IMG/VR virus record: IMGVR_UViG_3300027659_000037
Span: 1-60,661 of that record
Reading direction: 5' to 3' (one strand)
Origin: a virus
Length of the DNA stretch: 60,661 nucleotides
The first letter of the stretch is position 1. Every line of letters begins with the position of its first letter. The translations under genes were made by a program, and so were the position numbers. Below the pieces are notes generated by a model. The model worked only from the letters and a program-made list of their open reading frames with translations, searched no databases and had not been told where the DNA came from. Positions 1,563 to 27,509 of this stretch are shown here, piece by piece.

Positions 1563-1565
1563 GAT

Positions 1566-2210: not shown

Positions 2211-2219
2211 GATTACTCC

Positions 2220-5355: not shown

Positions 5356-5366
5356 GATTTAGCTCC

Positions 5367-6209: not shown

Positions 6210-6228
6210 TTAAGGACTCCTTGAAAAT

Positions 6229-6696
6229 TTAAGTACCTTTGCCAAAGCTTGTCGAAGACTTGTTCTCTCTAAAGAGCGGCATCCTCGGATCACTTTGACG
6301 CATTAGGCTATTGTCTACAGCTTCCGCTTGAGCTTTTGTGAACTTCGTAACGTAATCCTCACGTTGCTCCATAAACTCAGACGGGCACTTGCAAAGCAAC
6401 AGCCCACCAATTTCGATATTATTTTTAAATCGACTATCGGGGTCGATTAAGAACTGGAACTTGGGTTGTTCTTCAATTGCGACTGGCTCCCAACCTTCCC
6501 GGAACTTGCCGGAAATGTTTCGTTGGTCTACCTTGTCCAAAGTAGAAACCCTTACCCATCTGTACGCATATCCCGGCTGTTTATCAGGCTCAGGAAGGAG
6601 ATCCGCTTGCTGCCACTGTTTAGGGCGCTCTTGCGTAGCTCTGCTCTGCATTTCACGCGACAATCTGTTTTCTGCTACTTTTACGTCTGTTGCCAT
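6229..6696 (-). CDS. Conserved head-region protein, function unknown
   Basis: 155 aa. Basic N-terminus (RLSREMQSRATQERPKQW), then WVRVSTLDKVDQRNISGKFREGWEPV, FQFLIDPDSRFKNNIEIGG and LLLCKCPSEF, and an alpha-helical tail. No catalytic motif. The GGAGG site before it lies inside the 3' end of the scaffold gene, so expression is likely coupled. Placed between scaffold and capsid genes. Confidence 0.65.
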   Translation of the reverse strand: MATDVKVAENRLSREMQSRATQERPKQWQQADLLPEPDKQPGYAYRWVRVSTLDKVDQRNISGKFREGWEPVAIEEQPKFQFLIDPDSRFKNNIEIGGLLLCKCPSEFMEQREDYVTKFTKAQAEAVDNSLMRQSDPRMPLFRENKSSTSFGKGT

Positions 6697-6697
6697 C

Positions 6698-7672
6698 TTA
6701 GGCCTCCAATTTCATCATTTCACGGGCGTACTGCTCGTTGGTTAATCTGAGTTTTTTAGCCAAGGCAACTTGTGTCTTTGTTAGCACGACCTGTTTGGGG
6801 GCGGTACTACGTTTAGCAGGTGCAACAACTGTGCTTGGTTTTGTACGTTGAGGTTTTTCCTCATCGTTGTTTGTAGTCGCCGCGAATTCTTCTGGGAATC
6901 TACGTCTGACTTCTTTGTCAATACTGCCGTAGTATTCGTCAGTACCTATATATCCACGTCCGTACCGTTCTGAAAGCTCTTCGTGGAATCCTTCAGCAAA
7001 TTTGCGCATCGCTAATTTGTTACGGTCTACAAACCATGGGTTGTTCGAGACCCAGTTAGCGACCTTAGGATCCATCTGCTGAGTTGCAGGCTGGTTAGTT
7101 TGGGTAGTTTGTACACGATTTTCATCAGTTTGTACAGTGGGCCTGAAATTCTTTGCTTTATCAAGCTTCATTTCTGCTCGAACTAACTCTTTCTGCGCAG
7201 CCAAAACTTTATCAGAATCTCCAGAGTCATAAGCCTCTTTGTAATTCCGTTCAGCTTTGTCAATTTCCATTTCAGCAGAACTTTGATACGTAGAAATTAA
7301 TTCTTTCTCGCCTGTTTGAATCATAGACTTGAGTCTTTTATTCTCGTCTAGAATTCGTTCAGCGACTGTCAGCGCCTCTTGTTGTTCACGCAGGGCTGAT
7401 TCTTTTGCACGCCGCTCGTCATGCCAAGCCTTTTTATATTGCTTAAACTTGACTTTTACGTTCTTTGTGTACTCTTCAGACTCATCAGCATTTTCAAGTT
7501 CTTGCTGTGTGTTTTCGTCCAAAGGGGGCGCTACAAATCTATCTTCTTGGGGTGTGTCGTCAACGATCTTTACCTCGACTTCATCCTCCTCAATAGTGAT
7601 ATTTACCTCTTGGGCATTCTTTTCTTCCTCGAGTTCATCGGGAAATCTGTATGGATCACCAAATCTTGACAT
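6698..7672 (-). CDS. Scaffold protein (capsid assembly)
   Basis: 324 aa. Acidic N-terminus (runs of Glu/Asp around residues 10-60), a long coiled-coil of Lys/Glu/Ala about residues 70-175, a Gln/Thr/Pro linker, and a basic C-terminal segment. This acidic-coil-basic pattern immediately before the capsid genes is typical of phage scaffolding proteins. No protease motif seen, so processing, if any, is not shown. Confidence 0.82.
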   Translation of the reverse strand: MSRFGDPYRFPDELEEEKNAQEVNITIEEDEVEVKIVDDTPQEDRFVAPPLDENTQQELENADESEEYTKNVKVKFKQYKKAWHDERRAKESALREQQEALTVAERILDENKRLKSMIQTGEKELISTYQSSAEMEIDKAERNYKEAYDSGDSDKVLAAQKELVRAEMKLDKAKNFRPTVQTDENRVQTTQTNQPATQQMDPKVANWVSNNPWFVDRNKLAMRKFAEGFHEELSERYGRGYIGTDEYYGSIDKEVRRRFPEEFAATTNNDEEKPQRTKPSTVVAPAKRSTAPKQVVLTKTQVALAKKLRLTNEQYAREMMKLEA

Positions 7673-7681
7673 GTACGCTCC

Positions 7682-8092
7682 TTATTTGCGTTTGATGCCA
7701 CGGGGGTCTTCTACAACACCTTCGACTGAGTCGTCGTTGATGATGCGGAATTCGCGTCCGTGGATGAGTAGGCGTGAGCCTGCGTTGGGTCGAGTCAACA
7801 CAAAATCACCTTTTTGACACCAAGGCCCAGTCGGAAACTTTGCCTTGTCTGCGTAGCAGTCTGGGCCAAGATCGACAACGAACAAAACTGTAGTGAGCAG
7901 CTCGTCGTATCGCAGGGTCTCGTCTGCTTTGATAATCCCAATATCGCCTTCATACTCCTTCTCCTGCTCGGGGATCGCGCACAGGATTTTGTAGCCCGCA
8001 GGCTTTGGTAGTTGAGTCGCCTTCTCTTCATCTTTCTTGTGCATGATCGCTTCGAGGTTTAGCGCCAGCCCAAGATCTAAAGTTTCACTCAT
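7682..8092 (-). CDS. GroES-like co-chaperonin
   Basis: 136 aa. From about residue 25 the sequence follows the GroES pattern: a PAGYKILCAI first strand, a mobile-loop-like segment, an L-V/V-DLGPDCY barrel strand, QKGDFVLTRPNAGSRL, and a final VEGVVEDP. Phage co-chaperonins such as T4 gp31 help fold capsid protein with host GroEL; that role is inferred here. It lies between portal and scaffold, i.e. in the head-assembly block. Confidence 0.8.
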   Translation of the reverse strand: MSETLDLGLALNLEAIMHKKDEEKATQLPKPAGYKILCAIPEQEKEYEGDIGIIKADETLRYDELLTTVLFVVDLGPDCYADKAKFPTGPWCQKGDFVLTRPNAGSRLLIHGREFRIINDDSVEGVVEDPRGIKRK

Positions 8093-8291
8093 CTAATTTC
8101 TCCAAGTTTTTCGTCAGGTCTGTGATGTATCTACGAGCGGTGAGCAGACCTGTAATTTCCCCACACATCCCGCAGTACTCGTCGTACGACCTAGCAGCTC
8201 GCGCTCCCAAGGCATCTTCGAGTTGTTTGACTTTCTCGTCAATTTGTTTCGCTGTGAACTCCAGCGCTTGTCTTATTTCGTAGGACATCAT
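8085..8291 (-). CDS. Small helical conserved protein
   Basis: 68 aa. Predominantly helical (EIRQALEFTAKQIDEKVKQLEDAL...), with a CGMCG element in the middle and a Lys/Leu-rich tail. It overlaps both the portal gene (ATGA-type) and the GroES-like gene, so expression is coupled. I recall similar small proteins in aquatic phages. Function unknown. Confidence 0.65.
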   Translation of the reverse strand: MMSYEIRQALEFTAKQIDEKVKQLEDALGARAARSYDEYCGMCGEITGLLTARRYITDLTKNLEKLDE

Positions 8292-10816
8292 TCATCCTTC
8301 TTTACTGGTGTTTTTTGTGGTTGGTTTCGCATCTGTCTATCCTGCTGTTTGCCTTGATGAGACAACTGCTCCCGTTGTCTGACCATGTCCATGCCTGTAC
8401 GGAAGCCATCAGCCTCTTGTTGATGCGCGCGCTGTGCTTCATTGTTCTGGTGTTGCATTGCAATCCTGGCTCCTTCAGTCTCTTGGTTGGCCTCAATACG
8501 CTTGAGTTCAACTTGAATCTGAGCCATCTTGGCCTGCATATCAGCCATGTCTTTCTGGGCCTTACGCTGCAAGTCTTGTTGCTTGATCTGCAACTCTTGT
8601 TGCTGCAACTGGATAAGCGGATCTTGAGCTTGCTGTTGGTTCTTCTGCTGTTGAGCTTCTTGCTGGTTTTGCTGGAGAAGTTGCTGAGATGCTTGCGCTG
8701 CCATCTTAGAAACTTGAACTTCCATCTCAGGAGACATTTGTTCTTCGTCCTTCTCCTCCTCGTATGGGGGTAAGGTCTGATCCATAGTCATCTCAACTTG
8801 CTTACGGTACTCCATACCTAAATGCTCGAATACGTGAGCCATCATTGCAGCTTGTAATTGCTGAGCCATCTGAGGATTCATACCCACGATGCTTTGTATT
8901 TTTGGATCCTGCATTGCTGTCATATGAACTGCAATATGGGCTTGATGATCCTGATACAAGAAAGCCTTGACCGGCTTATTAGAAAGGATGTTCATGTTCT
9001 CTGTGACTGGGTCACGCGGCTTCATGTCCTCTGCAACTGGTATCAATTTTTGGTAGTTCTTAATACCAATCACGTCTAACATCTGTCTATGAAGCTGGGG
9101 TAGGTCATACAGTTGTGGCGCAGTCTGGGCTAATTGAAGAGCCGCCTGATACTGAACAACTTTCTGAGCCATCGTTGCTGCATTAGGATCACTTACTGGA
9201 ATCACTTCCACGTAGTCATAGTCACTCTGCTTAGCGTGACGACCGCCTTCTTCTGGCTCGTAGCTGTACTCTGTAGGAGTGTAGTCGCGGATGATATCTT
9301 TGAGTAGCTTAAACTCCTGCCTCATCGAATAATGGACACGGGCCTGAATTGCACTCATAGTTTTGAGTTGACGCTCAAGAATAGCCAGCGTTGTACCAAC
9401 CGGGGACTGGGCCGACATGTCAGCCACTTGCAGGTCAACAGTGCCAGCAAACTTACGGCCTTCATCAATGATTGTCTGGAGGAGAGCAGCCAGAACCTGA
9501 CTTGGTTCTTTGTATGGCAGCGGCATTATGTTGTCGCGTAGGTTGCCACTTGGGACGTCCATGTCACGGAACTCTCCGGGACTTATCGGTGTGTCGTCTC
9601 CTTTGGATCGAAGCCCCCGTGTTTTAAAGCCCCCGGGTAGATTCGCCAGAGTACCAGCATCCACCAACTGACGCAGGATAGAAGTGCCAGACTTGGCAAA
9701 AGCACCAATAAGATGAATAAGGCCGAAACAGTAAAATCCAAAGCCCGGGATATAGCCGTAATGCACAAAGTGAGTACGTTTAATACATTGCTCATCTTCT
9801 GGTCTCCAGTTTCTACGTATCGCTAACACGTCACCTGAACTCTTCTCAATAGTGACGATGTAAGGCAGGGCAATCCCAGTCTCATTCCCATCGTCGTCCG
9901 TATGCTCATAACCGGGCAAGTCCATCTCGACCTGCATCTCCAAGAGCTTGAAACGGTCATCCTCAGACGCCCTAAAGCCAAGCTTCTCAGCGATCTTCTT
10001 CTCTACCTCGTCCATGACATTGATCGGATCACCCAAGTCAATATCTCGGTAAAAACCTTCATGCTGCAATTTCTTAAGCTCGTTCGCAGTTTTGCGCATC
10101 ACGTGGGTCACACGTTCTGCTGAGTCCAAACTTGAAGCACCGTAGGGCACAACCACGTCCTCGGCTGGCACATACATAGAGACCTGACGATTCAAGCTGG
10201 GATCAAAGTACACCTTCTTGAACGCGTTACCCGCCAGACCCAAGCCCCACAACATGCGCTCATGCTCGGGGCGAAACTCCTTCATCACGTCCGTCAGTTG
10301 GTAGTTCATATCTACCTGTACGCGCTCAGCCGCTTTCTTCTTCTCAGGAGTCTCTTTGCCGATGATCTGAGTCTTAACTGGGCCTGCTGCTGGGAACGTA
10401 GACATCATGGTCTCAGCTTGAAACTTAACGACGGACTCACTCAATATTGGGTGAAACACACCACATGCTCCGGGCCAAGGCTCCATACGTTCTTCAAGCT
10501 TCATACCAAGCAACTCAAGACCATCTACATATGTCTGAATATAATCTTTGCGACTAGAGACATCTGCCTCATACTCACCAACAAGATCCCCAGATAAGCG
10601 CGTCAAGTCGTCATCGCTCATATCTTCAGCTAAGTTCTTGCTAAACTCGTCTTCGTCCTCAGACTTCTCCATCTCAATCTCAAAGCCCGGGCCTCTGATA
10701 CTTACAGCTTCTGGGTCTTCGATCGTGATCTCAATCGGCTCATCTTCCTCACCAAGTTGCTCTATGCCCTGAGGTGCGTCTGTATAGACTGATTTGTCCA
10801 TGTTTGTTGCCATCAT
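8288..10816 (-). CDS. Portal protein
   Basis: 842 aa. An acidic N-terminal leader of about 70 residues is followed by the portal core: DYIQTYVDGLELLG, RMEPWPGACGVFHPIL and a stem region, with WGLGLAGNAFKKVYFDP and RNWRPEDEQCIKRTHFVHYGY further on. The C-terminal 140 or so residues are Gln-rich coiled coil (MEVQVSKMAAQ...QQQ). Length matches large podovirus portal proteins. Immediately after the terminase/accessory genes, as expected. Confidence 0.92.
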   Translation of the reverse strand: MMATNMDKSVYTDAPQGIEQLGEEDEPIEITIEDPEAVSIRGPGFEIEMEKSEDEDEFSKNLAEDMSDDDLTRLSGDLVGEYEADVSSRKDYIQTYVDGLELLGMKLEERMEPWPGACGVFHPILSESVVKFQAETMMSTFPAAGPVKTQIIGKETPEKKKAAERVQVDMNYQLTDVMKEFRPEHERMLWGLGLAGNAFKKVYFDPSLNRQVSMYVPAEDVVVPYGASSLDSAERVTHVMRKTANELKKLQHEGFYRDIDLGDPINVMDEVEKKIAEKLGFRASEDDRFKLLEMQVEMDLPGYEHTDDDGNETGIALPYIVTIEKSSGDVLAIRRNWRPEDEQCIKRTHFVHYGYIPGFGFYCFGLIHLIGAFAKSGTSILRQLVDAGTLANLPGGFKTRGLRSKGDDTPISPGEFRDMDVPSGNLRDNIMPLPYKEPSQVLAALLQTIIDEGRKFAGTVDLQVADMSAQSPVGTTLAILERQLKTMSAIQARVHYSMRQEFKLLKDIIRDYTPTEYSYEPEEGGRHAKQSDYDYVEVIPVSDPNAATMAQKVVQYQAALQLAQTAPQLYDLPQLHRQMLDVIGIKNYQKLIPVAEDMKPRDPVTENMNILSNKPVKAFLYQDHQAHIAVHMTAMQDPKIQSIVGMNPQMAQQLQAAMMAHVFEHLGMEYRKQVEMTMDQTLPPYEEEKDEEQMSPEMEVQVSKMAAQASQQLLQQNQQEAQQQKNQQQAQDPLIQLQQQELQIKQQDLQRKAQKDMADMQAKMAQIQVELKRIEANQETEGARIAMQHQNNEAQRAHQQEADGFRTGMDMVRQREQLSHQGKQQDRQMRNQPQKTPVKKDE

Positions 10817-11076
10817 CTACCCTTTAGAGTTGCCCGGTTTGTACGAGCTGAATACGTAAAATCTTTTGCGGGGTGACCTGTGCTTTTCACTGCACGATCC
10901 TTTGCCCGTTCTTCAGCAGTCATCATGTTGCGTTTCTGTCCTGCTGCTGTCAGTGACCCGTCTTCCTTCATATGCCCACGCTGTTTGAGTATGGCAATCG
11001 CCGTGTCCTTGTTACCGACCTGTGCTGCAAGCCGATCAACCAACTGATTGCGTCCCATAAACTTCTGTGTAGTCAC
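10813..11076 (-). CDS. Small conserved protein of the packaging block
   Basis: 87 aa. NQLVDRLAAQVGNKDTAIAILKQRGHM at the start looks like a small helical/HTH-type unit, followed by DGSLTAAGQKRNMMTAEERAKDRAVK and a Tyr/Thr/Arg-rich tail. Conserved next to portal genes in my recollection of uncultured phages. Overlaps the portal start by 4 bases. May bind DNA; not shown. Confidence 0.7.
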   Translation of the reverse strand: MTTQKFMGRNQLVDRLAAQVGNKDTAIAILKQRGHMKEDGSLTAAGQKRNMMTAEERAKDRAVKSTGHPAKDFTYSARTNRATLKGR

Positions 11077-11576
11077 TTGACCATTCTCCCTCTAGTCTTG
11101 CCACGGGAAGCTATGCCATCTGCGCGGGAAGAAGCGGTAACCTTGCCCCCCTTTTTAAGAGGTTCAAAACCCCCGCTGTCTGGGTTGTATCTCTCCACAT
11201 CTTTCCTGCTTACCGCCCTGTTTTTGGGAACTTTTTCAATTGGTACGCGAAGCACGGAGGAGCCTTCAGAAACATTGGTCGGCACATTGTCAGACTGGGT
11301 GAAGTATTTTTGTTTTTTACCGCCTTCTTTAGGAAGCATATACCCAGATTCTTTAATTGCCTCAAGTTCTTCTGGCCCTCTTACGTTTCGACCAGCATAT
11401 TTACCAGAAGCTGGCAAACCGTCTGTTTCTGAATAAACTGAGTTTTTAACTCTTGGGCGCATGAAAACTTCGGCTTTGTCTTTGATTTTCCCCATCAAAG
11501 AACTAAACCCGCCTCCGCTCCCGCCGCCTTCAAGCAATTGTTCGTCTAGTCCGCGTTTTGAATTGTTTTTAGCCAT
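11073..11576 (-). CDS. Late protein with conserved DEQxLEGGG start and RADG-GKTRG end
   Basis: 167 aa. Starts MAKNNSKRGLDEQLLEGGGSGGG and ends ASSRADGIASRGKTRGRMVK; the middle (mostly Lys, Pro, Val, Glu) is unlike its relatives at 1200-1562 and 2793-3221. Contains a KKGGKVT element shortly before the tag. Located between large terminase and portal genes, 8-10 kb from the other members. Function unknown. Confidence 0.75.
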   Translation of the reverse strand: MAKNNSKRGLDEQLLEGGGSGGGFSSLMGKIKDKAEVFMRPRVKNSVYSETDGLPASGKYAGRNVRGPEELEAIKESGYMLPKEGGKKQKYFTQSDNVPTNVSEGSSVLRVPIEKVPKNRAVSRKDVERYNPDSGGFEPLKKGGKVTASSRADGIASRGKTRGRMVK

Positions 11577-11584
11577 GTGAGTCC

Positions 11585-13111
11585 TTAATAATATGCCGCT
11601 TTTTTGCGGAACATCTTCTTGACGAAAGTGTCTTCTGGCTCATCGGTATCCAAGCGGATAAAGCCACCCTGCCGAAATCTCAACAGAGCCAATGTTGTGG
11701 AGTCTACCAAGTCATCGTTCGCTCCGCTAGGGAAGTCGTTGCATTCTTCTATGACTTCCTTTGCCCATCGTCTGTCCGGCGCATAGACCACGCCCCCTTG
11801 GAACAGACTGGAAACTGCGTTGACACGGGCAATCTTGTCCTGCCCCTTGCCCGGGGTGAACTCACCCACCGGTATGCCCATGCGCCTGAACTCTTGGTAC
11901 AGCGCCGCTCCGTTGGACTTCTTCTCCACCATGAACGCGTCTGGCTGCCACTCTTTGTACTCGTCAATGATCAAGGCTTTCAACTCGGGAAACTCGAGAC
12001 GTTTCTTGATTGAGTTTAAGAGAATGATCGCGTAATTGTTCGTCTCCTCATTGAAGAAGACTCCCCACGTCGTCAAAGCGTTGTAATCTGACCGATTTGT
12101 GGCTTCCTGCGCCGCATCCAGACTCATGATGGTGAACTCGCACGGGGGTGGCTCCTCTTTGTCCCAGATCTTCCACCACTCCCTCTTAATAAGAGCGCCT
12201 TCCTCGGACACGGGGTTCTGCATGTATTGGGCATTCCAATACCGCACGTCCAGCGCAGCTTTCTTGGCGTAAAGCTCTTCTACAGGCCAAAACTCGGGCC
12301 AAAGTGCCTCGCCATCGTCTGTGATTGCTGGAAACTCGACCACTTCCCACTGATCGACACCCTCTTCGCGGTTCATCTGGTTGACAATCATCCCTGTCAA
12401 GTCCAGCTTCGACCACCGAGTCATCACAACAATGATTGCACCGCCCGGCATAAGTCGCTGGAGAGGGCCAGACTGAAACCACTCCCAAGCAGGAAGAAAA
12501 ACATCAGCTCGCCCAGTCTTAGCGTCTTGTTCCGAATGAGGATCATCAATAATAAACAGATCAGCACCTCGACCAGCAAGAGCGCCACCCACACCGATTG
12601 CGAAATATTCCCCATGGAAGTTTGTACCCCATCTTGATGCCGACTTCGAGTCAGCTTGCAGCTCAACTTGCGGAAAAATGTCCTTGTAGTTGTCCATTCC
12701 CACCAAATTTCGCACTCTACGACCAAAATTCACTGCCAAATCAGCAGTGTGCGAGGCCATGATGATCTTTTTCTGTGGGTGCTTGCCCAAAAACCATGCT
12801 GGAGCAAGGTATGAAATCAATTCTGACTTACCGTGACGGGGTGCGATGTTTACAATCACCCTTTTCTTCTTGCCGTTGGCAATATCCTCGAAGATTTGGG
12901 CCAATTTCAGGTGGTGAGGGCCAACTTTGTACCCCGGATAGACGTGTTTGACGAAGTCAAGGAACGATTCCTTGCTCAAATCCTGCGTCATCTGGGCATC
13001 GTAGGTCTTAAGTAGCTCAAGAGTGCGTCTCTTTTGCTTCTCGGGCATTGTCGGCAGGGCTTGCCGTAGTTTAAATAGCTGTTCTGGAGAGAGTTGTGGA
13101 AGTGCTGTCAT
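11585..13111 (-). CDS. terL: Terminase large subunit
   Basis: 508 aa. ATPase domain: Walker A APRHGKSE (residues about 90-97) and Walker B LFIIDD at 185-190. C-terminal RNase H-like nuclease: IMSLDAAQEATNRSDYNAL, MVEKKSNGAALYQ and GANDDLVDSTT carry the acidic residues. It packages DNA into the prohead through the portal. Overlaps the upstream small-terminase candidate by 4 bases. Full length and intact. Confidence 0.95.
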   Translation of the reverse strand: MTALPQLSPEQLFKLRQALPTMPEKQKRRTLELLKTYDAQMTQDLSKESFLDFVKHVYPGYKVGPHHLKLAQIFEDIANGKKKRVIVNIAPRHGKSELISYLAPAWFLGKHPQKKIIMASHTADLAVNFGRRVRNLVGMDNYKDIFPQVELQADSKSASRWGTNFHGEYFAIGVGGALAGRGADLFIIDDPHSEQDAKTGRADVFLPAWEWFQSGPLQRLMPGGAIIVVMTRWSKLDLTGMIVNQMNREEGVDQWEVVEFPAITDDGEALWPEFWPVEELYAKKAALDVRYWNAQYMQNPVSEEGALIKREWWKIWDKEEPPPCEFTIMSLDAAQEATNRSDYNALTTWGVFFNEETNNYAIILLNSIKKRLEFPELKALIIDEYKEWQPDAFMVEKKSNGAALYQEFRRMGIPVGEFTPGKGQDKIARVNAVSSLFQGGVVYAPDRRWAKEVIEECNDFPSGANDDLVDSTTLALLRFRQGGFIRLDTDEPEDTFVKKMFRKKAAYY

Positions 13112-14388: not shown

Positions 14389-14417
14389 CCCTGTAAACCC
14401 TTTATAAGGAAATGAAA

Positions 14418-15086
14418 ATGGCTAAAGCAAAAACCCTGACTGCCCAAGCAGTCGCAGTGCAGTTCACTTCAGTGACAGACATCGCAGTGCAACATGGTCA
14501 AGCAGAGAATAAGATCTCTGCCTGTGCTGAGTACGCACTGGACATAATCAAAGGCTTTCCAGTACTGAAAGAAGTCTCAGAAGAAAACGTCAAAGCCCTG
14601 CGAGACGGTTATTCTTTGCATCATCGCAGTGTCTATAAGCCTAAGACATATGCAGTCATCAGTGGACAATACTTTGAGGCAACCCCAGATCATCTGGCAA
14701 ACGACAAAGTCGAAAAGATCAACGCAACGATCGACTGGGCAATGGTCTGGACACCCAATGAGATGGCGACTGAATTCAAAGATCGTCCAGAATTAAAAAA
14801 GATCGTCGAAAAAGTACGCAAAGCACATTTAACTTATGTGTCTGACACACTGGGTAAATTGGTACGCAAAGCAGAGGCGATTTTAAAAGATCGTGCGGGT
14901 ATCAAAGCAGAACGTAGAATAGTTCTGTTTGTGAATACAGTCGGAGACTTCTTTGCAGCACAGGAAAAGTCAGTGAAAGTTAAGCAGACTCGAAGTGGCG
15001 ATGCTACTGCTAACCCTGAGAAGTTTAAGGAGGCAGTCAAAGCCTTTTGGTTAGCATATGGTCAGAGACCTACTCAGTCTAAGTAA
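14418..15086 (+). CDS. Early protein, first paralog of a tandem pair; function unknown
   Basis: 222 aa from ATG 14418 (MAKAKTLTAQ); an in-frame ATG at 14412 is only one base from the AAGGA site, so the second is preferred. Mostly helical with an IDTV/VRKAHLTYVSD... centre and a basic KSVKVKQTRSGDATANPEKFKEAVKAFW C-terminus. Clearly homologous to the next gene: shared HG(Q/K)AEN, GFP(V/I)LK, LRDGYSL, YAVI(S/N)GQYF, VEKVRKAHLTY and RGDATANPEK. No enzyme motif. Own leader and terminator. High charge suggests nucleic acid or protein binding. Confidence 0.85.
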   Translation: MAKAKTLTAQAVAVQFTSVTDIAVQHGQAENKISACAEYALDIIKGFPVLKEVSEENVKALRDGYSLHHRSVYKPKTYAVISGQYFEATPDHLANDKVEKINATIDWAMVWTPNEMATEFKDRPELKKIVEKVRKAHLTYVSDTLGKLVRKAEAILKDRAGIKAERRIVLFVNTVGDFFAAQEKSVKVKQTRSGDATANPEKFKEAVKAFWLAYGQRPTQSK

Positions 15087-15270: not shown

Positions 15271-15290
15271 TACCTGATGCAAATCAGGTA
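15271..15290 (+). promoter_or_regulatory. Leader stem-loop of second paralog gene
   Basis: TACCTGAT, GCAA loop, ATCAGGTA: a perfect 8-bp stem after the same TATTATTCTTTTA element as in the first leader and before CCCTTAAAAGGAAATG. Pairing is retained with different bases relative to 14361-14388. Confidence 0.7.
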
Positions 15291-15318
15291 TTTCAATCAA
15301 CCCTTAAAAGGAAATGTA

Positions 15319-15972
15319 ATGTCAAATCGTAAAACCCCGATAGCTCAAGCTATCAACCCCGTGGCTTTTGTCTCAATTACTGACATTGGTTTACAGCATG
15401 GCAAGGCTGAGAATCGTATTGATTCATGCGCTGAATCAGCCCTTGACCATATCGTAGGTTTCCCCATTCTCAAGGATGTCTCAACTGAGGATATCAAATC
15501 CTTGCGTGACGGCTATTCATTGGCTCACAAGGAAATCTACAAGGCTGTCACCTATGCTGTTATCAATGGACAGTATTTTCCCGCCACGCCAGAACACCTT
15601 GAAAACAAGAAGGTTGAGAAAATCGAAGCCACGATAGATTACGTCATGAGTTTCACGGCTAATCAAATGGGTACGGATTTCAAGGACAACCCCAACCTCA
15701 AGGCTGTCGTTGAGAAGGTTCGCAAGGCTCACCTCACTTATATATCTGATAAGTTAGGCAAGTTGGTGGACAAGGCTGAGAAGATTCTTAGAATACGCTC
15801 AGGTATCAAGGTTGAGCGCCAAGTGGTGTTATTCATTGATACCATGAAGAAGATATTTGAAGCACAAGGGAAATCTGTCAAGGTGAAACAATCTCAGCGT
15901 GGTGACGCCACGGCTAATCCTGAGAAATACAAAAAGGCTGTTGAAGCTTTTTGGCAAGCGTACAAAGCGTAA
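15319..15972 (+). CDS. Early protein, second paralog of a tandem pair; function unknown
   Basis: 217 aa from ATG 15319 (MSNRKTPIAQ), with AAAAGGAAA just upstream; this start matches that of the first paralog better than the in-frame ATG at 15277. It shares most of its length with the gene at 14418, including the HGKAEN, LRDGYSL, YAVINGQYF and VEKVRKAHLTY segments and the basic C-terminus. Codon choice differs at many shared positions, so the duplication is not recent. Function unknown. Confidence 0.85.
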   Translation: MSNRKTPIAQAINPVAFVSITDIGLQHGKAENRIDSCAESALDHIVGFPILKDVSTEDIKSLRDGYSLAHKEIYKAVTYAVINGQYFPATPEHLENKKVEKIEATIDYVMSFTANQMGTDFKDNPNLKAVVEKVRKAHLTYISDKLGKLVDKAEKILRIRSGIKVERQVVLFIDTMKKIFEAQGKSVKVKQSQRGDATANPEKYKKAVEAFWQAYKA

Positions 15973-16653: not shown

Positions 16654-16682
16654 TTGTGTTAAATGTATAGTTGTGGTATACT
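16654..16682 (+). promoter_or_regulatory. Sigma-70-type promoter with palindrome over -10, copy 1
   Basis: TTGTGT (16654-16659), 17-base spacer, TATACT (16677-16682). An inverted repeat GTATA-N7-TATAC (16665-16681) overlaps the -10 box and could be a repressor site. The surrounding 43 bases recur with two mismatches at 19547-19589. Drives the gene cluster from 16790. Confidence 0.75.
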
Positions 16683-16739
16683 TATATCTGAGTCGAGGAT
16701 GAAACGCTTGCAGGTCGCAAGCACCACGGCTTGTTTAGT

Positions 16740-16759
16740 GTTCCGTCATCAGACGGAAC
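16740..16759 (+). promoter_or_regulatory. TTCCGTC stem-loop, copy 4
   Basis: GTTCCGTC, loop ATCA, GACGGAAC: perfect 8-bp stem, the longest of the family, in the 5' leader between promoter and the gene at 16790 (30 bases before its start). Confidence 0.75.
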
Positions 16760-16789
16760 GGATCAATGTCAGACCTTTAGGAGAGAGTC

Positions 16790-19547: not shown

Positions 19548-19576
19548 TTGTGTTATATGTATAGTTGTGGTATACT
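19548..19576 (+). promoter_or_regulatory. Sigma-70-type promoter with palindrome over -10, copy 2
   Basis: TTGTGT (19548-19553), 17-base spacer, TATACT (19571-19576), with GTATA-N7-TATAC overlapping the -10. It is 41/43 identical to the copy at 16653. Drives the DUF3150-like/MoxR/VWA module. A 6-bp inverted repeat (ACGCAA / TTGCGT) lies just upstream at 19526-19542. Confidence 0.75.
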
Positions 19577-19621: not shown

Positions 19622-19639
19622 TTCCGTCACCAGACGGAA
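19622..19639 (+). promoter_or_regulatory. TTCCGTC stem-loop, copy 6
   Basis: TTCCGTC, loop ACCA, GACGGAA: perfect 7-bp stem, 27 bases before ATG 19667 and about 40 bases after the promoter, in the 5' leader. Confidence 0.75.
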
Positions 19640-19666: not shown

Positions 19667-20596
19667 ATGAACACAGAGTTATCAAAGCCCAAGCATCTCA
19701 TCAGCTTGGCATCAAGTGCTGTCCTCGTCAGCGTGGATGCGAATGTATGGTCAGCGACCAAGCAAGACCGTGGCATCAGCAATGATGTTGCTGACTCAAA
19801 GCACGCCGATCGCAAGGCGGGCAAGTACGTTAAGAATCTGTTGGCAGATCATCCAAAGCACAAGGCGTTGGTCAACTATCGCCAGACGATTTACAACTGG
19901 GTCAAGCGTCGCACCTATCGTTGGAACAACTCACAGGACTTGTTGCCGAGCATCGACGTGCCTAAGTTCAAGCAGGAGTTCGGCGAGCATAAAGCGTCGT
20001 TCGAGAAACTTCTTGCAGATTTCATTCTGTCCTATGACGGAATCGTAAGTGACATGGCGTTCAAGGCAGGGGGCATGGGCGATATGTTCGATCGGTTGGA
20101 CTATCCTCCCAAGGAAGCATTGGCGGCTAAGTTCGGCGTTGAGCTTTATGTGTCCGAGGTTCCGATGAGTGACTTCCGTTGTGGCATTGCGAATGACATC
20201 GCTGATGATTTGTTTAGTACATACAGCAAGCAAGCCGAGGACATCGTGTCATCCATCGTCAACGAGCAGAAGACAAGGTTCATCGAGGTGATGCAGTCGA
20301 TCAGTCATTGTTGTGGCGTGGACGAGATCGGAGTGGACGACAACACAGGCGAGACCAAGACTCGCAAGCGCAAGATCTACGACACCACAATCCAGAAAGC
20401 GTTGGAGATGTGCGAGACCTTTAAGGGTTTCAACCTAAGCGACGATCCCGAGCTGGAGGTAGCCCGAGCATCGCTTGAGAGAGCATTGGCAGACGTAGAT
20501 GCCAAGAGTATCCGCGAGTCGGACGCAGTGCGTTCAAGTGTGAAGGAGGATGTAGACAGCATCCTCAGTAAGTTCAGTTCTTTTCAGTGTGTTTAA
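19667..20596 (+). CDS. DUF3150-like protein of the MoxR/VWA module
   Basis: 309 aa with AAGGAG before ATG 19667. Mostly helical with long coiled segments and several Trp/Tyr-rich motifs (WSATKQDRG, YNWVKRRTYRW). Size and position directly before a MoxR ATPase gene match proteins I know as DUF3150. The name is from recollection; no catalytic site is visible. It likely acts with the two genes that follow. Confidence 0.7.
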   Translation: MNTELSKPKHLISLASSAVLVSVDANVWSATKQDRGISNDVADSKHADRKAGKYVKNLLADHPKHKALVNYRQTIYNWVKRRTYRWNNSQDLLPSIDVPKFKQEFGEHKASFEKLLADFILSYDGIVSDMAFKAGGMGDMFDRLDYPPKEALAAKFGVELYVSEVPMSDFRCGIANDIADDLFSTYSKQAEDIVSSIVNEQKTRFIEVMQSISHCCGVDEIGVDDNTGETKTRKRKIYDTTIQKALEMCETFKGFNLSDDPELEVARASLERALADVDAKSIRESDAVRSSVKEDVDSILSKFSSFQCV

Positions 20597-20622
20597 TTCA
20601 GTAATCAATCAGGAGTTCCAAA

Positions 20623-21741
20623 ATGAGCAAAGTTTCTTTCGTCAATACCGTGACCATCAACGAACTACGGAAAATAATTCCGCTAATAGCTTCAGATCTG
20701 ACAGTGGTCGTACAGTCAGAACCTGGGTGTGGCAAGACCTCGCTGTTATCCATGATGGCGGTTGACAACGGTGACAAGTGGCGCAGTCCCAAGGATGGCA
20801 CAAACATCGAGGGTGACAAGTACGACTACATCTACGTTGACTGTCCGGTCAAGGACATGAGCGACATAGGTATGACTATCCCCAACCATGCGACCAAGCA
20901 GTTGGAGTACTACGTCGCTGAGTTGTTCAATATGAAAAGCAACAAGCCCAAGGTCATCTTGCTCGACGAGTTGATGAAGTCTCCCAAGCTGATGCAGATC
21001 ATCTATACCCGCCTGATGTTGGAGAGAATGTTAGGTGATGATCCGTTGCCAGACGGAAGCCAAATCATTGCGACGTCGAACAATGCAAGCGATGGCGTGG
21101 GCGATGCGATGTTGGCTCATGCGGCAAACCGTGTGTGTATTGTGCGCATGGCTAAGCCCACAGCTGATGAGTGGTTGCAGTGGGCAACAGCCAATGGAAT
21201 CTCTCGTGTTGTTCGTGCGTTCGTGGCGATGTTCCCGAGGGTGATGGCATCGTATACCGAGGGCGATATGCAGAAAGATAACCCTTACATCTTCAAGCCA
21301 AGCTCAGGTGCGTTGTCGTTCTGTTCCCCTCGTTCGTTGGCGAAGTGCGATGTGATCGTGAAGCATCGTGATGCGATAGGCGAGAACGCAACTATGGTTG
21401 CATTGGCAGGAACGATTGGTGCGTCAGCGGCAGGGGACATGGCGGCATTCATGTCGTTGGAGAAATCATTGACAGATGTCAAGGACATCGTGAAGAACCC
21501 GTTGGGTGTGACCATGCCGAGAGACATATCAGCCCAGTTGATGATTATGTTTCAAGCAGTAGATACATTGGCGACGCAGGATGAGTTGACAGCGTTCATG
21601 GAGTTCGTCGGTCGTATCGACTCAAGCGAAGTGCAAGCAGTGTTCTTCACCATGATGATGCGTAGTCCCAAAGCAGTGCGTCTTGCTCGCAACAATGCAA
21701 AGATCGCTGAGTGGGCTAAGAACAACCACGAATTGTTTTGA
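20623..21741 (+). CDS. MoxR-like AAA+ ATPase
   Basis: 372 aa. Walker A SEPGCGKTS (residues 32-40), Walker B VILLDE (111-116), sensor-1-like IIATSNN about residue 145. MoxR ATPases act as chaperones with VWA-domain partners to assemble or activate target complexes. The VWA gene lies about 460 bases downstream, so a functional pair is likely. The phage target is unknown. Confidence 0.88.
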   Translation: MSKVSFVNTVTINELRKIIPLIASDLTVVVQSEPGCGKTSLLSMMAVDNGDKWRSPKDGTNIEGDKYDYIYVDCPVKDMSDIGMTIPNHATKQLEYYVAELFNMKSNKPKVILLDELMKSPKLMQIIYTRLMLERMLGDDPLPDGSQIIATSNNASDGVGDAMLAHAANRVCIVRMAKPTADEWLQWATANGISRVVRAFVAMFPRVMASYTEGDMQKDNPYIFKPSSGALSFCSPRSLAKCDVIVKHRDAIGENATMVALAGTIGASAAGDMAAFMSLEKSLTDVKDIVKNPLGVTMPRDISAQLMIMFQAVDTLATQDELTAFMEFVGRIDSSEVQAVFFTMMMRSPKAVRLARNNAKIAEWAKNNHELF

Positions 21742-21753
21742 TAGGGGGGCAAT

Positions 21754-21930
21754 ATGAAACGATGGAAAGGAACACTTGTCGTGTCATACACACAAGATTT
21801 GGAAGTCGAAGCCGAGACGCAAGCCGAGGCTGAAGAATTGATGCGAGAAGCATTTGACCCAACACGATGCCATAACACCGCCGAGTGCCAAGCATACGAT
21901 GTTGAAGAAATAACAATGAGGGTTGAATGA
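21754..21930 (+). CDS. Small acidic protein
   Basis: 58 aa, ATG 21754 after GGGGGG-type site, stop overlapping the next ATG. MKRWKGTLVVSYTQDLEVEAETQAEAEELM is a beta hairpin followed by an acidic helix, then CHNTAEC. Resembles small DpnD/PcfM-like phage proteins by eye only. Function unknown. Confidence 0.6.
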   Translation: MKRWKGTLVVSYTQDLEVEAETQAEAEELMREAFDPTRCHNTAECQAYDVEEITMRVE

Positions 21931-22124
21931 TGATAACTTTTACTGAGTTGGAGTTGGTGTTGCTGATTGCGTTTGGTGTGATGACGTTCTATTTTTTCAG
22001 ACTCAAGGCTGAGTTGTATATGCACAGGCGTGTAGTAGCAGAGATGTTCATGCGTATTGCCAAGGGCAATGTGAAGGTTACCCAGACTGATGATGGCTTT
22101 GACTTTGAGGACATCAAGTCATGA
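21927..22124 (+). CDS. Small single-span membrane protein
   Basis: 65 aa. One hydrophobic stretch (residues about 7-25, LELVLLIAFGVMTFYFF), then a charged cytosolic-type tail. Lies between the MoxR and VWA genes with ATGA overlaps at both ends. Confidence 0.6.
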   Translation: MMITFTELELVLLIAFGVMTFYFFRLKAELYMHRRVVAEMFMRIAKGNVKVTQTDDGFDFEDIKS

Positions 22125-22207
22125 GTGAAACAAAGTGGTTGACCGTCGTCTATGTGTTGGCGATGGTTGTTCTTGTGTTAGATATATTTTATTGGAGAGC
22201 GATATGA
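22121..22207 (+). CDS. Very small membrane peptide
   Basis: 28 aa: MSETKWLTVVYVLAMVVLVL followed by DIFYWRAI. ATG 22121 overlaps the preceding stop and its TGA overlaps the VWA start, which supports translation. A single membrane span. Confidence 0.5.
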   Translation: MSETKWLTVVYVLAMVVLVLDIFYWRAI

Positions 22208-23484
22208 GCAAGCAAGAAACGCGTGTTAAGAAGGCGCACATTGCGCTGATGAAACACCCAGAGACAGCGTTGTACTCAGGCGTGATGTTGATGGGGTACA
22301 GCAAGGTCGTGGATGAAGGATGTCCTACGGCATACACCGATGGTATCAACAAGGTATACGGTCGCAAGTTCTTGGAGGGTGTCGATACCGAGCCGAAGGT
22401 GCGTGGCTTGATACTGCATGAGAACCTGCATGTGGCGTTGAAGCAATTACCAAGAGGTAAGGATATGTTTGACGAGAACCAAAAGATGGCGAACATTGCC
22501 GCTGACTTTGTGGTGAACGGCATCATTGAGAACATCAAAGGCACAGTCAATGGGTCGAGTGAGCGTATCGTGGACTTGCCTGATGGTGGTGTGTTTGACC
22601 CCATGTTCGACAACTGGTCAATGCGTGAGGTATACAACTACCTCAAGAAGAACTGCAAAGGCGGTGGCAAGGGCAACGGTCAAGGTGGCAAGGGAGGTGG
22701 TCAAGGTAACGTTCCGTCAGGGGGCGGAAACGAAGATGGCGATGGAGACACTATCACCATCAATGGCAAGACCTATGATCTTTCTAACTCAGACCAACAT
22801 GATCTCGGCAACCTGAAAGATCTTACGCATGAGCAGGTCAAAGAGATCAACGATTCAATTGATCGTGCGTTGCGTGAGGGCGGGATGTTAGCAGGTCGTA
22901 TGGGTGCGAAAGTACCCCGAGCTATCTCTGACTTACTCGAACCCAAGATTGATTGGCGTGATGCGTTGAGAGACTTTGTAGCGAGTGCCATCAAGGGCAA
23001 GGATGAGTTCACATGGCGCAAGCTGAACAAGCGTCACATGGCTAATGACATCTACTTACCAAGCATGGAGAACGAGACGATCGGCGAGGTGGTCGTCGCC
23101 ATTGACACATCAGGGTCGATCGGCAGTGCGCAGATTACCGAGTTTGCGACAGAACTGGTCTCTATTTGCGATCTTTGTTCACCTGACAAAGTGCGTGTTC
23201 TGTGGTGGGACACCGATGTGCATGGTGAGCAAGTGTTCGAGGGTGACTACAAAGGCATTGCTCAGATGCTTAAGCCAATGGGTGGGGGTGGTACTCATGT
23301 GTCATGCGTCAACGATTACATCAACGAGCAAAAGATCAATGCCGAGTGCGTGATCGTGTTCACTGATGGCTACGTCGAGAATGACATCACGTGGAACATT
23401 CATAGTCCAACCCTGTGGATGGTGACACAGTGCAAATCGTTCGAGCCGCCTGTTGGCAAGTTGGTGAAGTTCGGTGAAGACTGA
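22204..23484 (+). CDS. VWA-domain protein with HExxH metallopeptidase-like N-terminus
   Basis: 426 aa. HENLH at residues 72-76 fits the zinc motif HExxH in a DUF2201-like N-terminal domain. A Gly/Asn/Lys-rich linker lies about residues 150-185. The VWA domain has the MIDAS DTSGS at 301-305 and FTDGY at 386-390. MoxR plus VWA pairs remodel or load metal/cofactor proteins, but the phage target is unknown. The earlier TTCCGTC-type sequence at 22707-22727 lies in the linker codons. Confidence 0.85.
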   Translation: MSKQETRVKKAHIALMKHPETALYSGVMLMGYSKVVDEGCPTAYTDGINKVYGRKFLEGVDTEPKVRGLILHENLHVALKQLPRGKDMFDENQKMANIAADFVVNGIIENIKGTVNGSSERIVDLPDGGVFDPMFDNWSMREVYNYLKKNCKGGGKGNGQGGKGGGQGNVPSGGGNEDGDGDTITINGKTYDLSNSDQHDLGNLKDLTHEQVKEINDSIDRALREGGMLAGRMGAKVPRAISDLLEPKIDWRDALRDFVASAIKGKDEFTWRKLNKRHMANDIYLPSMENETIGEVVVAIDTSGSIGSAQITEFATELVSICDLCSPDKVRVLWWDTDVHGEQVFEGDYKGIAQMLKPMGGGGTHVSCVNDYINEQKINAECVIVFTDGYVENDITWNIHSPTLWMVTQCKSFEPPVGKLVKFGED

Positions 23485-23821
23485 AGACCTATTCAAAGAT
23501 TACTCTTGGAAAAGGGTAACTTACTACAACGGTGTAGAAGACGTGACGTTGGTGTTCACCCATAAGCTTGAATCGCTTATCTTTCAAGCAAACAGAGCAC
23601 CGAAGTTGAATAGCGCCTATGGTAGAGGAGAGGAGGTGATTGTGCGTCATCGTATGTCCAAGGAGATAGCAGAGGAACTCTTGATTGACATGGGGGATTC
23701 TGCTTTCGTCTACTGTTTGGAGAGGATAGAGAACAACGCACAGAATTCACGACTGTGGCGGGATGTGTTGTTATGGCTAGGTGAAGAATCAACTAAAGGA
23801 GAAAGCAATGAGAGGATTTGA
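23474..23821 (+). CDS. Early protein, function unknown
   Basis: 115 aa, GTG start at 23474 (MKTEDLFKDYSW), overlapping the VWA gene by 11 bases. Mixed alpha/beta: VEDVTLVFTHKLESLIFQAN, EEVIVRHRMSKEIAEELLID. No family recognised. It is followed within its last bases by the next gene's ribosome site. Confidence 0.6.
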   Translation: MKTEDLFKDYSWKRVTYYNGVEDVTLVFTHKLESLIFQANRAPKLNSAYGRGEEVIVRHRMSKEIAEELLIDMGDSAFVYCLERIENNAQNSRLWRDVLLWLGEESTKGESNERI

Positions 23822-24788
23822 TTACAAGCGTTTAGAGCAGATCACGAAGATAGAGAAGCCGTTTCGTGGTACGACCAATCGGTTTCCAATCGGGAGTCGT
23901 AGGCGTAATCTTCAGAATTTCTACGTCAGGGAAGAGAATGGCGTAAAAGTATTTGACATAACGTGTGGGACTCGTTGGAACACAGTTGAGCTTACTAAGG
24001 AAGAATACGATGCGGGAATCGCAAGGTGCGAGAAGAACCTACATGAGTACACATACGACGCGAGTGCGGGTACTAAGTACGTCAGGTATGAGCATCCTAT
24101 CCATGTCTTAGGTACTGTGTACCCCGAGTACTTTCAATTCACTGCCGAGGGCAACTACCCCTATGGGCAAGGCGAGAAGAAGTTCCTTAGCGATGCCACT
24201 AGCGGATGGTTTAAGAACGACTCACGCAGGGGTGGGATGGTGTGGTCGATTGGGCGCAGTGATGCTTGGCGCGTGATGCCGATCTTCAAGAACATGAGAG
24301 TAACAACCGATCAGGCTATGCGCTCGCTTGATGAGTATTCCGTCATCGGGCGGAAAGTCAATCGCAAAGTGGGTAAAGAGGTTCTTGCAGGATACGAACA
24401 CTTCTACAAGGTAAGCGAGACCATGTGCAAGGCGATGGACAGAGAAGCGTTCTTGCGTACAGCTAAGGAAGTTCTTGAAGAACATAGGGACGATACCGAC
24501 TTTGAAGTAGCTGACGAATTGCGAGATCAAGCACCACTTGATGCAATGATTCTTTATGCGTCAGCGTTGGGTGTCGGAAGGATTCAAGATCAGATCGTCC
24601 ACCCTAACTGGCATCGGTCTGAACCGCATGAAATCTTTGAGAATCTTAAGCGACACATGAACAACAGAATCTACAAAGAACATCCCGAAGTGTTCAAGCT
24701 TGTGCGGTATGGGACGGATGAGAAGTATCCGCCGAGCGTGTGGGGGTACGAAGTCGAGGTCAATGGCGAGATTGTTCAGCAGTATTAA
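23808..24788 (+). CDS. Early protein, function unknown
   Basis: 326 aa from ATG 23808 (MRGFDYKRLEQITK), preceded by AAAGGAG. An in-frame GTG at 23781 lacks such a site. Mixed alpha/beta with many aromatic residues (GTRWNTVELTKEEYDAGI, GGMVWSIGRSDAWRVMPIF). No known motif. An imperfect TTCCGTC/GGCGGAA pair lies inside the gene near 24339. Confidence 0.65.
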   Translation: MRGFDYKRLEQITKIEKPFRGTTNRFPIGSRRRNLQNFYVREENGVKVFDITCGTRWNTVELTKEEYDAGIARCEKNLHEYTYDASAGTKYVRYEHPIHVLGTVYPEYFQFTAEGNYPYGQGEKKFLSDATSGWFKNDSRRGGMVWSIGRSDAWRVMPIFKNMRVTTDQAMRSLDEYSVIGRKVNRKVGKEVLAGYEHFYKVSETMCKAMDREAFLRTAKEVLEEHRDDTDFEVADELRDQAPLDAMILYASALGVGRIQDQIVHPNWHRSEPHEIFENLKRHMNNRIYKEHPEVFKLVRYGTDEKYPPSVWGYEVEVNGEIVQQY

Positions 24789-24809
24789 TCAACGAAAGGG
24801 AGAGAGATC

Positions 24810-25724
24810 ATGAGTAAATATATTCTTGCAGGATTCGAGAGCGAAGAACTTGAGCAAAAGATTAAAGAGCATCAAGCGTTCGCGCTGATGCGTGAGTTGT
24901 GTTTCAAGTATAACTTAAAAGTCATGTGTACGACCGAGTATCACCACGGTACGGCGTTTCAGATGTGCCACACCAATGGCATGGCGGTGGGCAAAGTGTT
25001 TGCTCAAACCATAGAGGATGGCAAGCTGGAGTATTGCTATCGCACACCATACTACAAGAAAGAGCGTGGCAGTAGTGAGGAGGACAAGGAGACACTACGT
25101 AGCGTCAAAGTATCTTCATTGATGTCTAGCATCAAGCGAGTCAAAGCAATCATTGATATACCTAAATTACTCGACAAGAAGATGGGCAAGCTTAGCGATG
25201 CGAAAGACATCATGGAGAAAGCGATGGGCACTAGCTACAAGTCCAGTAGTGAATTTGCAGCTAACGAGATACAAGCGTTGCTCTGTGCGTTTCTAGGGGA
25301 AACTCCTAATGGAAATCACCTGACAATCGACACACTTAAATGTAAAAAGGTACTTGACAAATACAATGAAGCTGATAGAGTAGCGAGCAAGAAGTTAGAA
25401 GAACTTGATCGGTTTTTTAGCAATCCTTTCTACATGATAGGTGCAGATAGTTTCGGTCATTTCATAGTTGGCAAAGTCAAAATCACAGGGGGAAAACAGT
25501 ATGAAATCGTTGAGCAGTTTAAGCGTTATGCAGACATCACCGAGCGTGATGATCTTATCCCTGTGATGACCATGACCAAGCTTGCGCATGAGGGTAAGGG
25601 ACATCGTTCGCAAAACGGTTACATCCCTGTGATTGATACGTATGACGAGAATCTTGACGCAGTGTTCTTCTATCATAACCAAGCCACACATTACGACTAC
25701 GTATGGATGGCAACCCCATGCTGA
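24810..25724 (+). CDS. Early protein, function unknown
   Basis: 304 aa, GGGAGAG site before ATG 24810. Starts MSKYILAGFESEELEQKIKEHQAFALM, then beta segments with CTTEYHHG and MCHTNGMAVGKV, a Lys-rich helical middle and a beta-rich end (FYHNQATHYDYVW). No family recognised. The next gene starts within its last 22 bases. Confidence 0.65.
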   Translation: MSKYILAGFESEELEQKIKEHQAFALMRELCFKYNLKVMCTTEYHHGTAFQMCHTNGMAVGKVFAQTIEDGKLEYCYRTPYYKKERGSSEEDKETLRSVKVSSLMSSIKRVKAIIDIPKLLDKKMGKLSDAKDIMEKAMGTSYKSSSEFAANEIQALLCAFLGETPNGNHLTIDTLKCKKVLDKYNEADRVASKKLEELDRFFSNPFYMIGADSFGHFIVGKVKITGGKQYEIVEQFKRYADITERDDLIPVMTMTKLAHEGKGHRSQNGYIPVIDTYDENLDAVFFYHNQATHYDYVWMATPC

Positions 25725-27483: not shown

Positions 27484-27509
27484 AGGCATGGTTCGCCATG
27501 CCTTTTTTT
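27484..27509 (+). terminator. Rho-independent terminator
   Basis: AGGCATGG, TTCG loop, CCATGCCT: perfect 8-bp stem with a UUCG-type tetraloop, then seven T. Ends the MoxR/VWA-to-DUF3310 unit. Confidence 0.95.

What the first reader, a model, noticed from the sequence alone, without database searches (positions are those of the whole stretch)
19667..23484. Phage-encoded DUF3150-like/MoxR/VWA module
A promoter-driven unit encodes a DUF3150-like protein, a MoxR AAA+ ATPase, three tiny proteins (two membrane) and a VWA protein with an HENLH metal site and intact DTSGS MIDAS. Known MoxR-VWA pairs remodel protein complexes. In a phage this could activate a phage enzyme, disarm a host defence complex or alter the envelope. 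The two membrane peptides between the ATPase and VWA genes are unexplained.
Basis: partly seen in the sequence, partly recalled or inferred. Interest (0 to 1): 0.75.

Follow-up and report, generated by a model that had tools for sequence, protein, structure and literature searches.

The report
Three-gene protein-remodelling machine in phages
A freshwater phage carries a conserved three-gene set (a DUF3150 protein, a MoxR-type ATPase and a protease-like VWA protein) that also occurs in many other viruses and on bacterial plasmids; it probably works early inside the cell, not in building the virus particle, but its target is unknown.

Summary
19667-23484 encodes a DUF3150 protein, a MoxR-like AAA+ ATPase, three small ORFs (two membrane) and a VWA protein with an HExxH site and intact MIDAS. 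ATPase and VWA are the coliphage N4 gp24/gp25 families, core genes of N4-like phages.

New here: DUF3150 membership is established by profile comparison (E 4.5e-34), and DUF3150 appears to be an obligate partner of the pair. Of 80 diverse viral DUF3150 loci, 76 hold all three genes and the other four are cut by contig ends. The same triad sits on burkholderial plasmids and a Chitinophaga chromosome. No held paper mentions DUF3150.

The only published idea found for such phage pairs, virion assembly, is disfavoured: Pelagibacter phages with the same head genes (major capsid protein 64% identical) lack all three genes, and plasmids make no virions. A conserved sigma70-type promoter, a covarying leader hairpin and DNA-metabolism neighbours point to early expression.

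Best reading: an ATP-driven remodelling machine, possibly proteolytic, acting early on a host complex or on DNA metabolism. The target is inferred. The membrane peptides are accessory, absent from 39 of 101 spacers. Novelty: a new three-part variant of a known kind.

The parts
19548..19576 (+). sigma70-type promoter (TTGTGT-17-TATACT); relatives have TTGAC(T/A)-17-TATACT, 39 of 85 also with a TTGAC-N6-GTCAA palindrome
   Evidence: comparative: 49 of 85 distinct upstream regions against 0 of 1700 shuffles; second exact copy of AGTTGTGGTATACTTAT at 16669
19622..19639 (+). leader hairpin TTCCGTC-ACCA-GACGGAA in the 5' untranslated region, before the RBS
   Evidence: perfect stem in 59 of 82 relatives' leaders against 6% of shuffles; all 7 pairs show changes on both sides, covariation score 0.486 vs 0.204 shuffled, 0/500
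19667..20596 (+). P1: DUF3150 protein, 309 aa, mostly helical
   Evidence: hhalign to 10 DUF3150 proteins prob 99.9, E 4.5e-34; Foldseek top hit DUF3150 phage protein 1.0e-13; AlphaFold pLDDT 77.8, pTM 0.55
20623..21741 (+). P2: MoxR-like AAA+ ATPase, 372 aa, homologue of N4 gp24
   Evidence: phrog_1297 8.1e-51; catalytic motifs in 22/22 homologues; family profile best PDB match midasin 1.7e-37
21754..21930 (+). S1: 58 aa soluble ORF, not conserved
   Evidence: no homologue in other spacers
21927..22124 (+). S2: 65 aa single-TM protein, accessory
   Evidence: family in 60 of 101 distinct P2-P3 spacers, pN/pS 0.51
22121..22207 (+). S3: 28 aa single-TM peptide, accessory
   Evidence: family in 24 of 101 distinct spacers, pN/pS 0.50; ATGA overlaps with S2 and P3
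22204..23484 (+). P3: metallopeptidase-like domain (HExxH H72-H76, NxAxD to D101) plus VWA domain (290-426, MIDAS D301/S303/S305/T364/D388), homologue of N4 gp25
   Evidence: PF13203 2.8e-24, PF09967 9.8e-16; phrog_1314 1.2e-84; VWA fold Z 12.3; family profile hits minigluzincins and M48 proteases at the HExxH segment, weakly
23474..23821 (+). N1: 115 aa downstream ORF, variable
   Evidence: in some relatives only
23808..24788 (+). N2: conserved downstream protein of unknown function
   Evidence: follows P3 in most relatives; no Pfam or PHROG match above chance
24810..25724 (+). N3: conserved downstream protein of unknown function
   Evidence: follows N2 in most relatives; no Pfam or PHROG match above chance
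27484..27503 (+). terminator-like site, possible end of the transcription unit
   Evidence: 8-bp stem plus T-run, consensus match only

Best explanation
A three-component, ATP-driven protein-remodelling machine expressed early in infection from a host-sigma70-type promoter. P2 (MoxR-like AAA+) would form the hexameric motor. P3 would dock on it through its C-terminal VWA domain and present a substrate through the MIDAS, next to an N-terminal gluzincin-like metallopeptidase domain that may cut or bind it. P1 (DUF3150, helical) would be the third subunit, most likely adaptor or scaffold. Shown: the genes, motifs, homologies, tight linkage, promoter and leader. Inferred: complex formation, ATPase and protease activity, early timing, and the target. 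Because the same module serves phages and plasmids with unrelated replication and structural genes, a host complex common to many bacteria is the most economical target (my estimate 0.4 for host-directed, 0.3 for the element's own DNA-metabolism machinery). It is not primarily a virion-assembly factor. The two membrane peptides are optional accessories.
For: Tight triad: 76 of 80 diverse viral DUF3150 loci carry all three genes, the other 4 are truncated. Triad on plasmids and a Chitinophaga chromosome. Co-inheritance of the three proteins, distance r 0.75-0.86 against permuted maxima of at most 0.23. Motor motifs kept: in 22/22; in the 51-locus set a GKS/GKT P-loop and a DxSxS MIDAS are present in all; HExxH in 48/51. 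Conserved promoter and structured leader. Neighbours include PolA, a resolvase-like nuclease, DUF3310 and helicases, with unrelated terminase types. Head-module relatives without the triad. The analogous NorQ-NorD pair works by VWA docking and remodelling (PMC13036017).
Against: No biochemical or genetic test of this triad was found, and no target is known. HExxH is lost in 3 of 51 (Variovorax, P. dioscoreae, L148), so proteolysis may not be universal. Early location fits several functions. N4, Bacillus phage G, Thermus phage phiFa and a Rhizobium phage have MoxR+VWA with no detectable DUF3150, so the third part is not needed everywhere.
Confidence: 0.55

Rival explanations
1. Virion assembly or maturation chaperone-protease, as proposed for the MoxR plus metallopeptidase-VWA pair of group 2.2 jumbo phages (Iyer et al. 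2021, PMC7824862) and reported for the MoxR-VWA pair of Acidianus two-tailed virus.
For: Published proposal and the archaeal virus precedent. In RPP1 some virion proteins are encoded near the N4 gp24/25 homologues (PMC4193335).
Against: HTVC027P and 023Pt_psg01 share the window's head module (MCP 64.5 and 62.5%, portal 43%, TerL about 48.6% identical) but lack all three genes. The triad occurs on plasmids, with no virion. It travels with several unrelated terminase types. N4 gp24/25 are middle genes (PMC4193335).
Confidence: 0.1
2. Remodels the element's own DNA-metabolism complexes, for example loading, recycling or clearing replication or recombination proteins.
For: Neighbouring PolA, resolvase-like nuclease, DUF3310 and helicases. 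Presley gp25 homologue is directly followed by a DNA helicase. Rhizobium phage VWA lies near DNA polymerase I. Core in N4-like phages.
Against: Replication proteins differ among carriers, so a shared own-target is less economical. Early regions also collect host-takeover genes, so location is weak evidence.
Confidence: 0.3
3. A conflict or defence module (superinfection exclusion or anti-element immunity) that has spread on mobile elements, like MoxR-VWA ternary conflict systems.
For: MoxR-VWA pairs are common in predicted conflict systems (PMC7159879). Weak PADLOC mad8 match of P2, 0.00036. Presence on plasmids and a chromosome.
Against: No effector gene is consistently linked. The pair is core in all 25 N4-like phages compared, which suggests a basic function. 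No PADLOC match for P1 or P3.
Confidence: 0.15
4. Cofactor or metal insertion (auxiliary metabolism), by analogy with Mg/Co chelatases and NorQD.
For: Mechanistic analogy only (PMC13036017).
Against: No metalloenzyme gene recurs next to the module.
Confidence: 0.05

Closest known systems
Coliphage N4 gp24 / gp25 (PHROG 1297 / 1314)
   Same: Adjacent homologous AAA+ ATPase and HExxH-VWA protein; core and middle-expressed in N4-like phages (PMC4193335)
   Different: No DUF3150 partner found in N4; listed as of unknown function; gp25 is annotated 'HNH endonuclease' in RefSeq
MoxR + metallopeptidase-VWA pair of group 2.2 jumbo phages (Iyer et al. 2021, PMC7824862)
   Same: Same two-domain architecture of the VWA partner and MoxR pairing
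   Different: DUF3150 not mentioned in the passage; proposed role is virion assembly, which the present data disfavour for this triad
DUF3150 triads of cyanophage MinM2 / Pag-Yong1
   Same: MoxR, DUF3150 and VWA-like genes on one strand within about 4.5 kb, isolate phages
   Different: Order MoxR-DUF3150-VWA with other small ORFs between; 22-24% identity to the window proteins
Burkholderial plasmid MoxR-DUF3150-VWA cassettes (e.g. pBMC401)
   Same: Same three families, contiguous
   Different: Plasmid-borne, often beside type IV secretion genes; HExxH lost in some
NorQ-NorD, CbbQ-CbbO, RavA-ViaA
   Same: MoxR AAA+ plus VWA-MIDAS partner that remodels a protein complex
   Different: Two-component, cellular, no HExxH domain of this family and no DUF3150 (from general knowledge, not tested here)

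Membership tests
DUF3150 (Pfam PF11348) | homology to DUF3150 proteins over most of their length | tested here: met
   hhalign of 53 relatives to 10 DUF3150s: prob 99.9, E 4.5e-34, 283 columns; decoys prob below 10. The single window protein stays below Pfam's cut-off; 10 of 53 relatives match weakly, best 0.0008
DUF3150 (Pfam PF11348) | similar predicted fold | tested here: met
   best structural match is an annotated viral DUF3150 protein, E 1.0e-13, with low global TM (0.37), probably from differing arm positions
MoxR AAA+ ATPases | Walker A, Walker B, sensor-1 Asn, conserved Arg, sensor-2 Arg | tested here: met
   P34, G35, G37, K38, D115, N153, R170, R237 in 22/22
MoxR AAA+ ATPases | genomic pairing with a VWA protein | tested here: met
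   relatives with enough sequence
MoxR AAA+ ATPases | helix-2-insert clade placement | tested here: inconclusive
   family profile is nearest to midasin AAA domains (1.7e-37); insert itself not examined, no tree built
MoxR AAA+ ATPases | hexamer and ATP hydrolysis | not testable with these tools
   needs biochemistry
DUF2201 metallopeptidase-VWA proteins | both Pfam domains | tested here: met
   PF13203 86.6 bits (cut-off 23.2) and PF09967 58.4 bits (cut-off 26.4)
DUF2201 metallopeptidase-VWA proteins | intact MIDAS and HExxH | tested here: met
   D301-S303-S305-T364-D388 and H72-E73-H76
DUF2201 metallopeptidase-VWA proteins | VWA (Rossmann-like) fold | tested here: met
   Z 12.3, rmsd 2.6, 137 residues; N-terminal domain not covered by that search
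DUF2201 metallopeptidase-VWA proteins | proteolytic activity | not testable with these tools
   needs biochemistry
N4 gp24/gp25 family | match to PHROG 1297 and 1314 | tested here: met
   8.1e-51 and 1.2e-84
Virion-assembly MoxR-VWA chaperones | found only with a virion, and needed by phages with the same virion genes | tested here: not met
   absent from phages with homologous head genes; present on plasmids

The most novel reading that the evidence does not exclude
DUF3150-MoxR-metalloVWA is a previously unrecognised class of mobile-element machine: an ATP-driven, possibly proteolytic dismantler of a host complex common to many bacteria, used by both phages and plasmids during establishment in the cell.
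Probability: 0.3. Interest if true: 0.85.

Novelty: new variant of a known kind. Interest (0 to 1): 0.6.

Why it matters
N4 gp24/gp25 are core genes of a large phage family listed as of unknown function, and a homologous pair with a third, tightly linked partner is spread over hundreds of viral contigs and over plasmids. The present data weigh against the published virion-assembly reading and define a testable three-protein unit with clear catalytic residues. If the machine acts on a host complex, its target would be a general weak point of bacteria exploited by unrelated mobile elements.

Tried and rejected
HNH endonuclease (PHROG/RefSeq label of the N4 gp25 family): no HNH domain match; the histidine motif is HExxH of a putative metallopeptidase.

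DUF3150 hidden in N4, phage G, Thermus phiFa or Rhizobium phage TM3_14A: neighbouring genes of suitable size do not match and whole records give nothing.

N2/N3 as homologues of the MinM2 genes downstream of its VWA gene (one annotated AcrVA2 in Pag-Yong1): no match.

A solved structure for DUF3150: none found by sequence or by VIA-align, where best Z about 8.5 is at chance level for helical models.

A distant VWA scan of viral contigs failed because the alignment has no conserved stretch. The genome-contig scan for the VWA gave only three relatives. Gene fusions of the three components: none in the loci checked. Membrane peptides as core parts: rejected. Rfam match for the leader: none.
Full report
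What is there. The window is a whole IMG/VR virus record of 60,661 bp; whether the virus genome is complete is not known. The finding's coordinates hold. A DUF3150-like protein (P1), an AAA+ ATPase (P2), three small ORFs (S1-S3) and a VWA protein (P3) lie on the plus strand. S1-S2-S3-P3 are joined by start/stop overlaps, which sets P3's start at 22204. P2 and P3 match PHROG 1297 and 1314 and are homologues of coliphage N4 gp24 and gp25. tblastn finds the VWA protein in 673 and the ATPase in 405 annotated phage records, all below 60% identity. N4 gp24 and gp25 are among the 14 core genes of 25 N4-like phages, are listed as of unknown function, and are middle transcripts (PMC4193335).

DUF3150 is real. 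P1 alone gives no Pfam hit and no annotated phage hit. Ten of 53 close relatives match DUF3150 weakly. A Chitinophaga chromosome carries MoxR, DUF2201-VWA and a bona fide DUF3150 side by side. With ten such proteins from plasmids, a cyanophage and Chitinophaga, profile-profile comparison with P1 gives probability 99.9 and E 4.5e-34 over 283 columns, while unrelated families give nothing. The predicted structure's best viral match is an annotated DUF3150 protein. No paper in the held library mentions DUF3150.

A tight triad. Close relatives in viral contigs keep the order P1-P2-P3. Of the 80 best loci, 76 carry all three genes and the other four end at a contig edge. Orders vary (ATPase-DUF3150-VWA 42, DUF3150-ATPase-VWA 25, ATPase-VWA-DUF3150 7, other 2), so this is a linked set, not one fixed operon. 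Distances among the three proteins are correlated (r 0.75-0.86; permuted maxima 0.23). All three are under purifying selection (pN/pS 0.18-0.26).

Outside phages. The triad lies on plasmids of Burkholderia, Robbsia, Caballeronia, Variovorax, Cupriavidus, Paraburkholderia, Rhodovastum and Simplicispira. In four of those examined it is beside type IV secretion genes. In the Simplicispira plasmid the gene I took as the ATPase lies about 3.6 kb away. N4, Bacillus phage G, Thermus phage phiFa, a Rhizobium phage, cyanophage S-TIM5 and Synechocystis pSYSA carry MoxR plus VWA. For N4, phage G, phiFa and the Rhizobium phage, whole-record profile searches found no DUF3150.

Motifs. Across 22 divergent homologues the ATPase motifs and the MIDAS are invariant or nearly so. 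HExxH is kept in 19, lost in Variovorax, P. dioscoreae and L148. In the larger set of 51 loci, HExxH is present in 48 and MIDAS DxSxS in all. The HExxH segment weakly matches minigluzincins and M48 proteases. The VWA fold is confirmed. This favours a working motor with a substrate-binding partner; protease activity is likely but not universal.

Not virion assembly. Iyer et al. (PMC7824862) described a MoxR plus metallopeptidase-VWA pair in group 2.2 jumbo phages and proposed a role in virion assembly with processing of structural proteins. Two results speak against this for the triad. First, Pelagibacter-type phages HTVC027P and 023Pt_psg01 share the window's major capsid protein (64.5 and 62.5%), portal (43%) and terminase (about 48.6%) yet lack all three genes in whole-record profile searches that found the pair or triad in positive controls. 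Second, plasmids carry the triad. The module also sits beside unrelated terminase types.

Timing and place. The transcript starts at a conserved TTGAC(T/A)-17-TATACT promoter and has a leader hairpin with changes on both sides at all seven pairs. Neighbours that recur in diverse loci include DNA polymerase A, a resolvase-like nuclease and DUF3310. This places the module with early/DNA-metabolism genes. Early expression is inferred, not measured.

The membrane peptides. S2 is in 60 and S3 in 24 of 101 distinct spacers. Thirty-nine have neither, and both are less constrained (pN/pS 0.5). They are real but optional; their function is unknown.

Most likely mechanism. By analogy with NorQ-NorD, where the VWA partner docks on the AAA+ ring and is twisted by ATP turnover (PMC13036017), P2 would drive conformational work on a substrate held by P3's MIDAS, with P3's protease-like domain cutting or gripping it and P1 as adaptor or scaffold. 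Carriers have unrelated structural genes and differing replication genes, so a host complex is the most economical shared target; the element's own DNA-metabolism machinery is the main rival. Neither is shown.

Novelty. MoxR-VWA pairs in phages are known. The tightly linked DUF3150 component, its spread over phages and plasmids, and the evidence against an assembly role are new as far as the held literature shows. I rate it a new variant of a known kind.

Limits. The host is unknown; structures are moderate (pLDDT 77.8, pTM 0.55 for both); the N-terminal domain of P3 was not tested alone; IMG/VR contigs are often fragments; DUF3150 absence in N4-type phages means not detectable with these profiles.

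Noticed in passing
window 15217, 16092, 16742, 17096, 19623 and loci L005, L018, L039, L150, L201: A family of leader hairpins with one arm sequence per phage: TCCGTC...GACGGA five times in the window, TCTGTC...GACAGA seven times in L005, TTCACG three times in L150, and the other phages' arms rare. Expected 0 per shuffled window. This looks like concerted evolution, as if a fast-changing trans-acting factor recognises them.
   Followed up: partly
window 16655-16760: A second copy of the module's promoter and leader hairpin in front of the ORF at 16791, so the leader is shared by several early operons.
   Followed up: partly
RefSeq/PHROG records of the N4 gp25 family (e.g. NC_008720 EPNV4_gp25): Labelled 'HNH endonuclease' across many phage records although the family is a DUF2201 metallopeptidase-VWA protein: a probable spreading misannotation.
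   Followed up: partly
L244, L245, L248, L251: On four burkholderial plasmids the MoxR-DUF3150-VWA triad lies directly beside VirB-type type IV secretion genes, in L245 also close to PRTRC genes.
   Followed up: partly
window 23808-25724: Two conserved proteins of unknown function (N2, N3) follow the module in most relatives.
   Followed up: partly
window 1200-3221 and 11073-11576, minus strand: Four or five different small proteins near the structural genes end in a similar basic tag such as ARADGIAQRGKTRG or SRADGIASRGKTRG, perhaps a packaging or sorting signal.
   Followed up: no
window 14412-15086 and 15277-15972: Two tandem, visibly similar early proteins (224 and 231 aa), each preceded by a promoter-like site.
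   Followed up: no
window 4444-13111, minus strand: Head and packaging genes are homologous to Pelagibacter podophages HTVC027P and 023Pt_psg01, while the early region is largely unrelated.
   Followed up: yes
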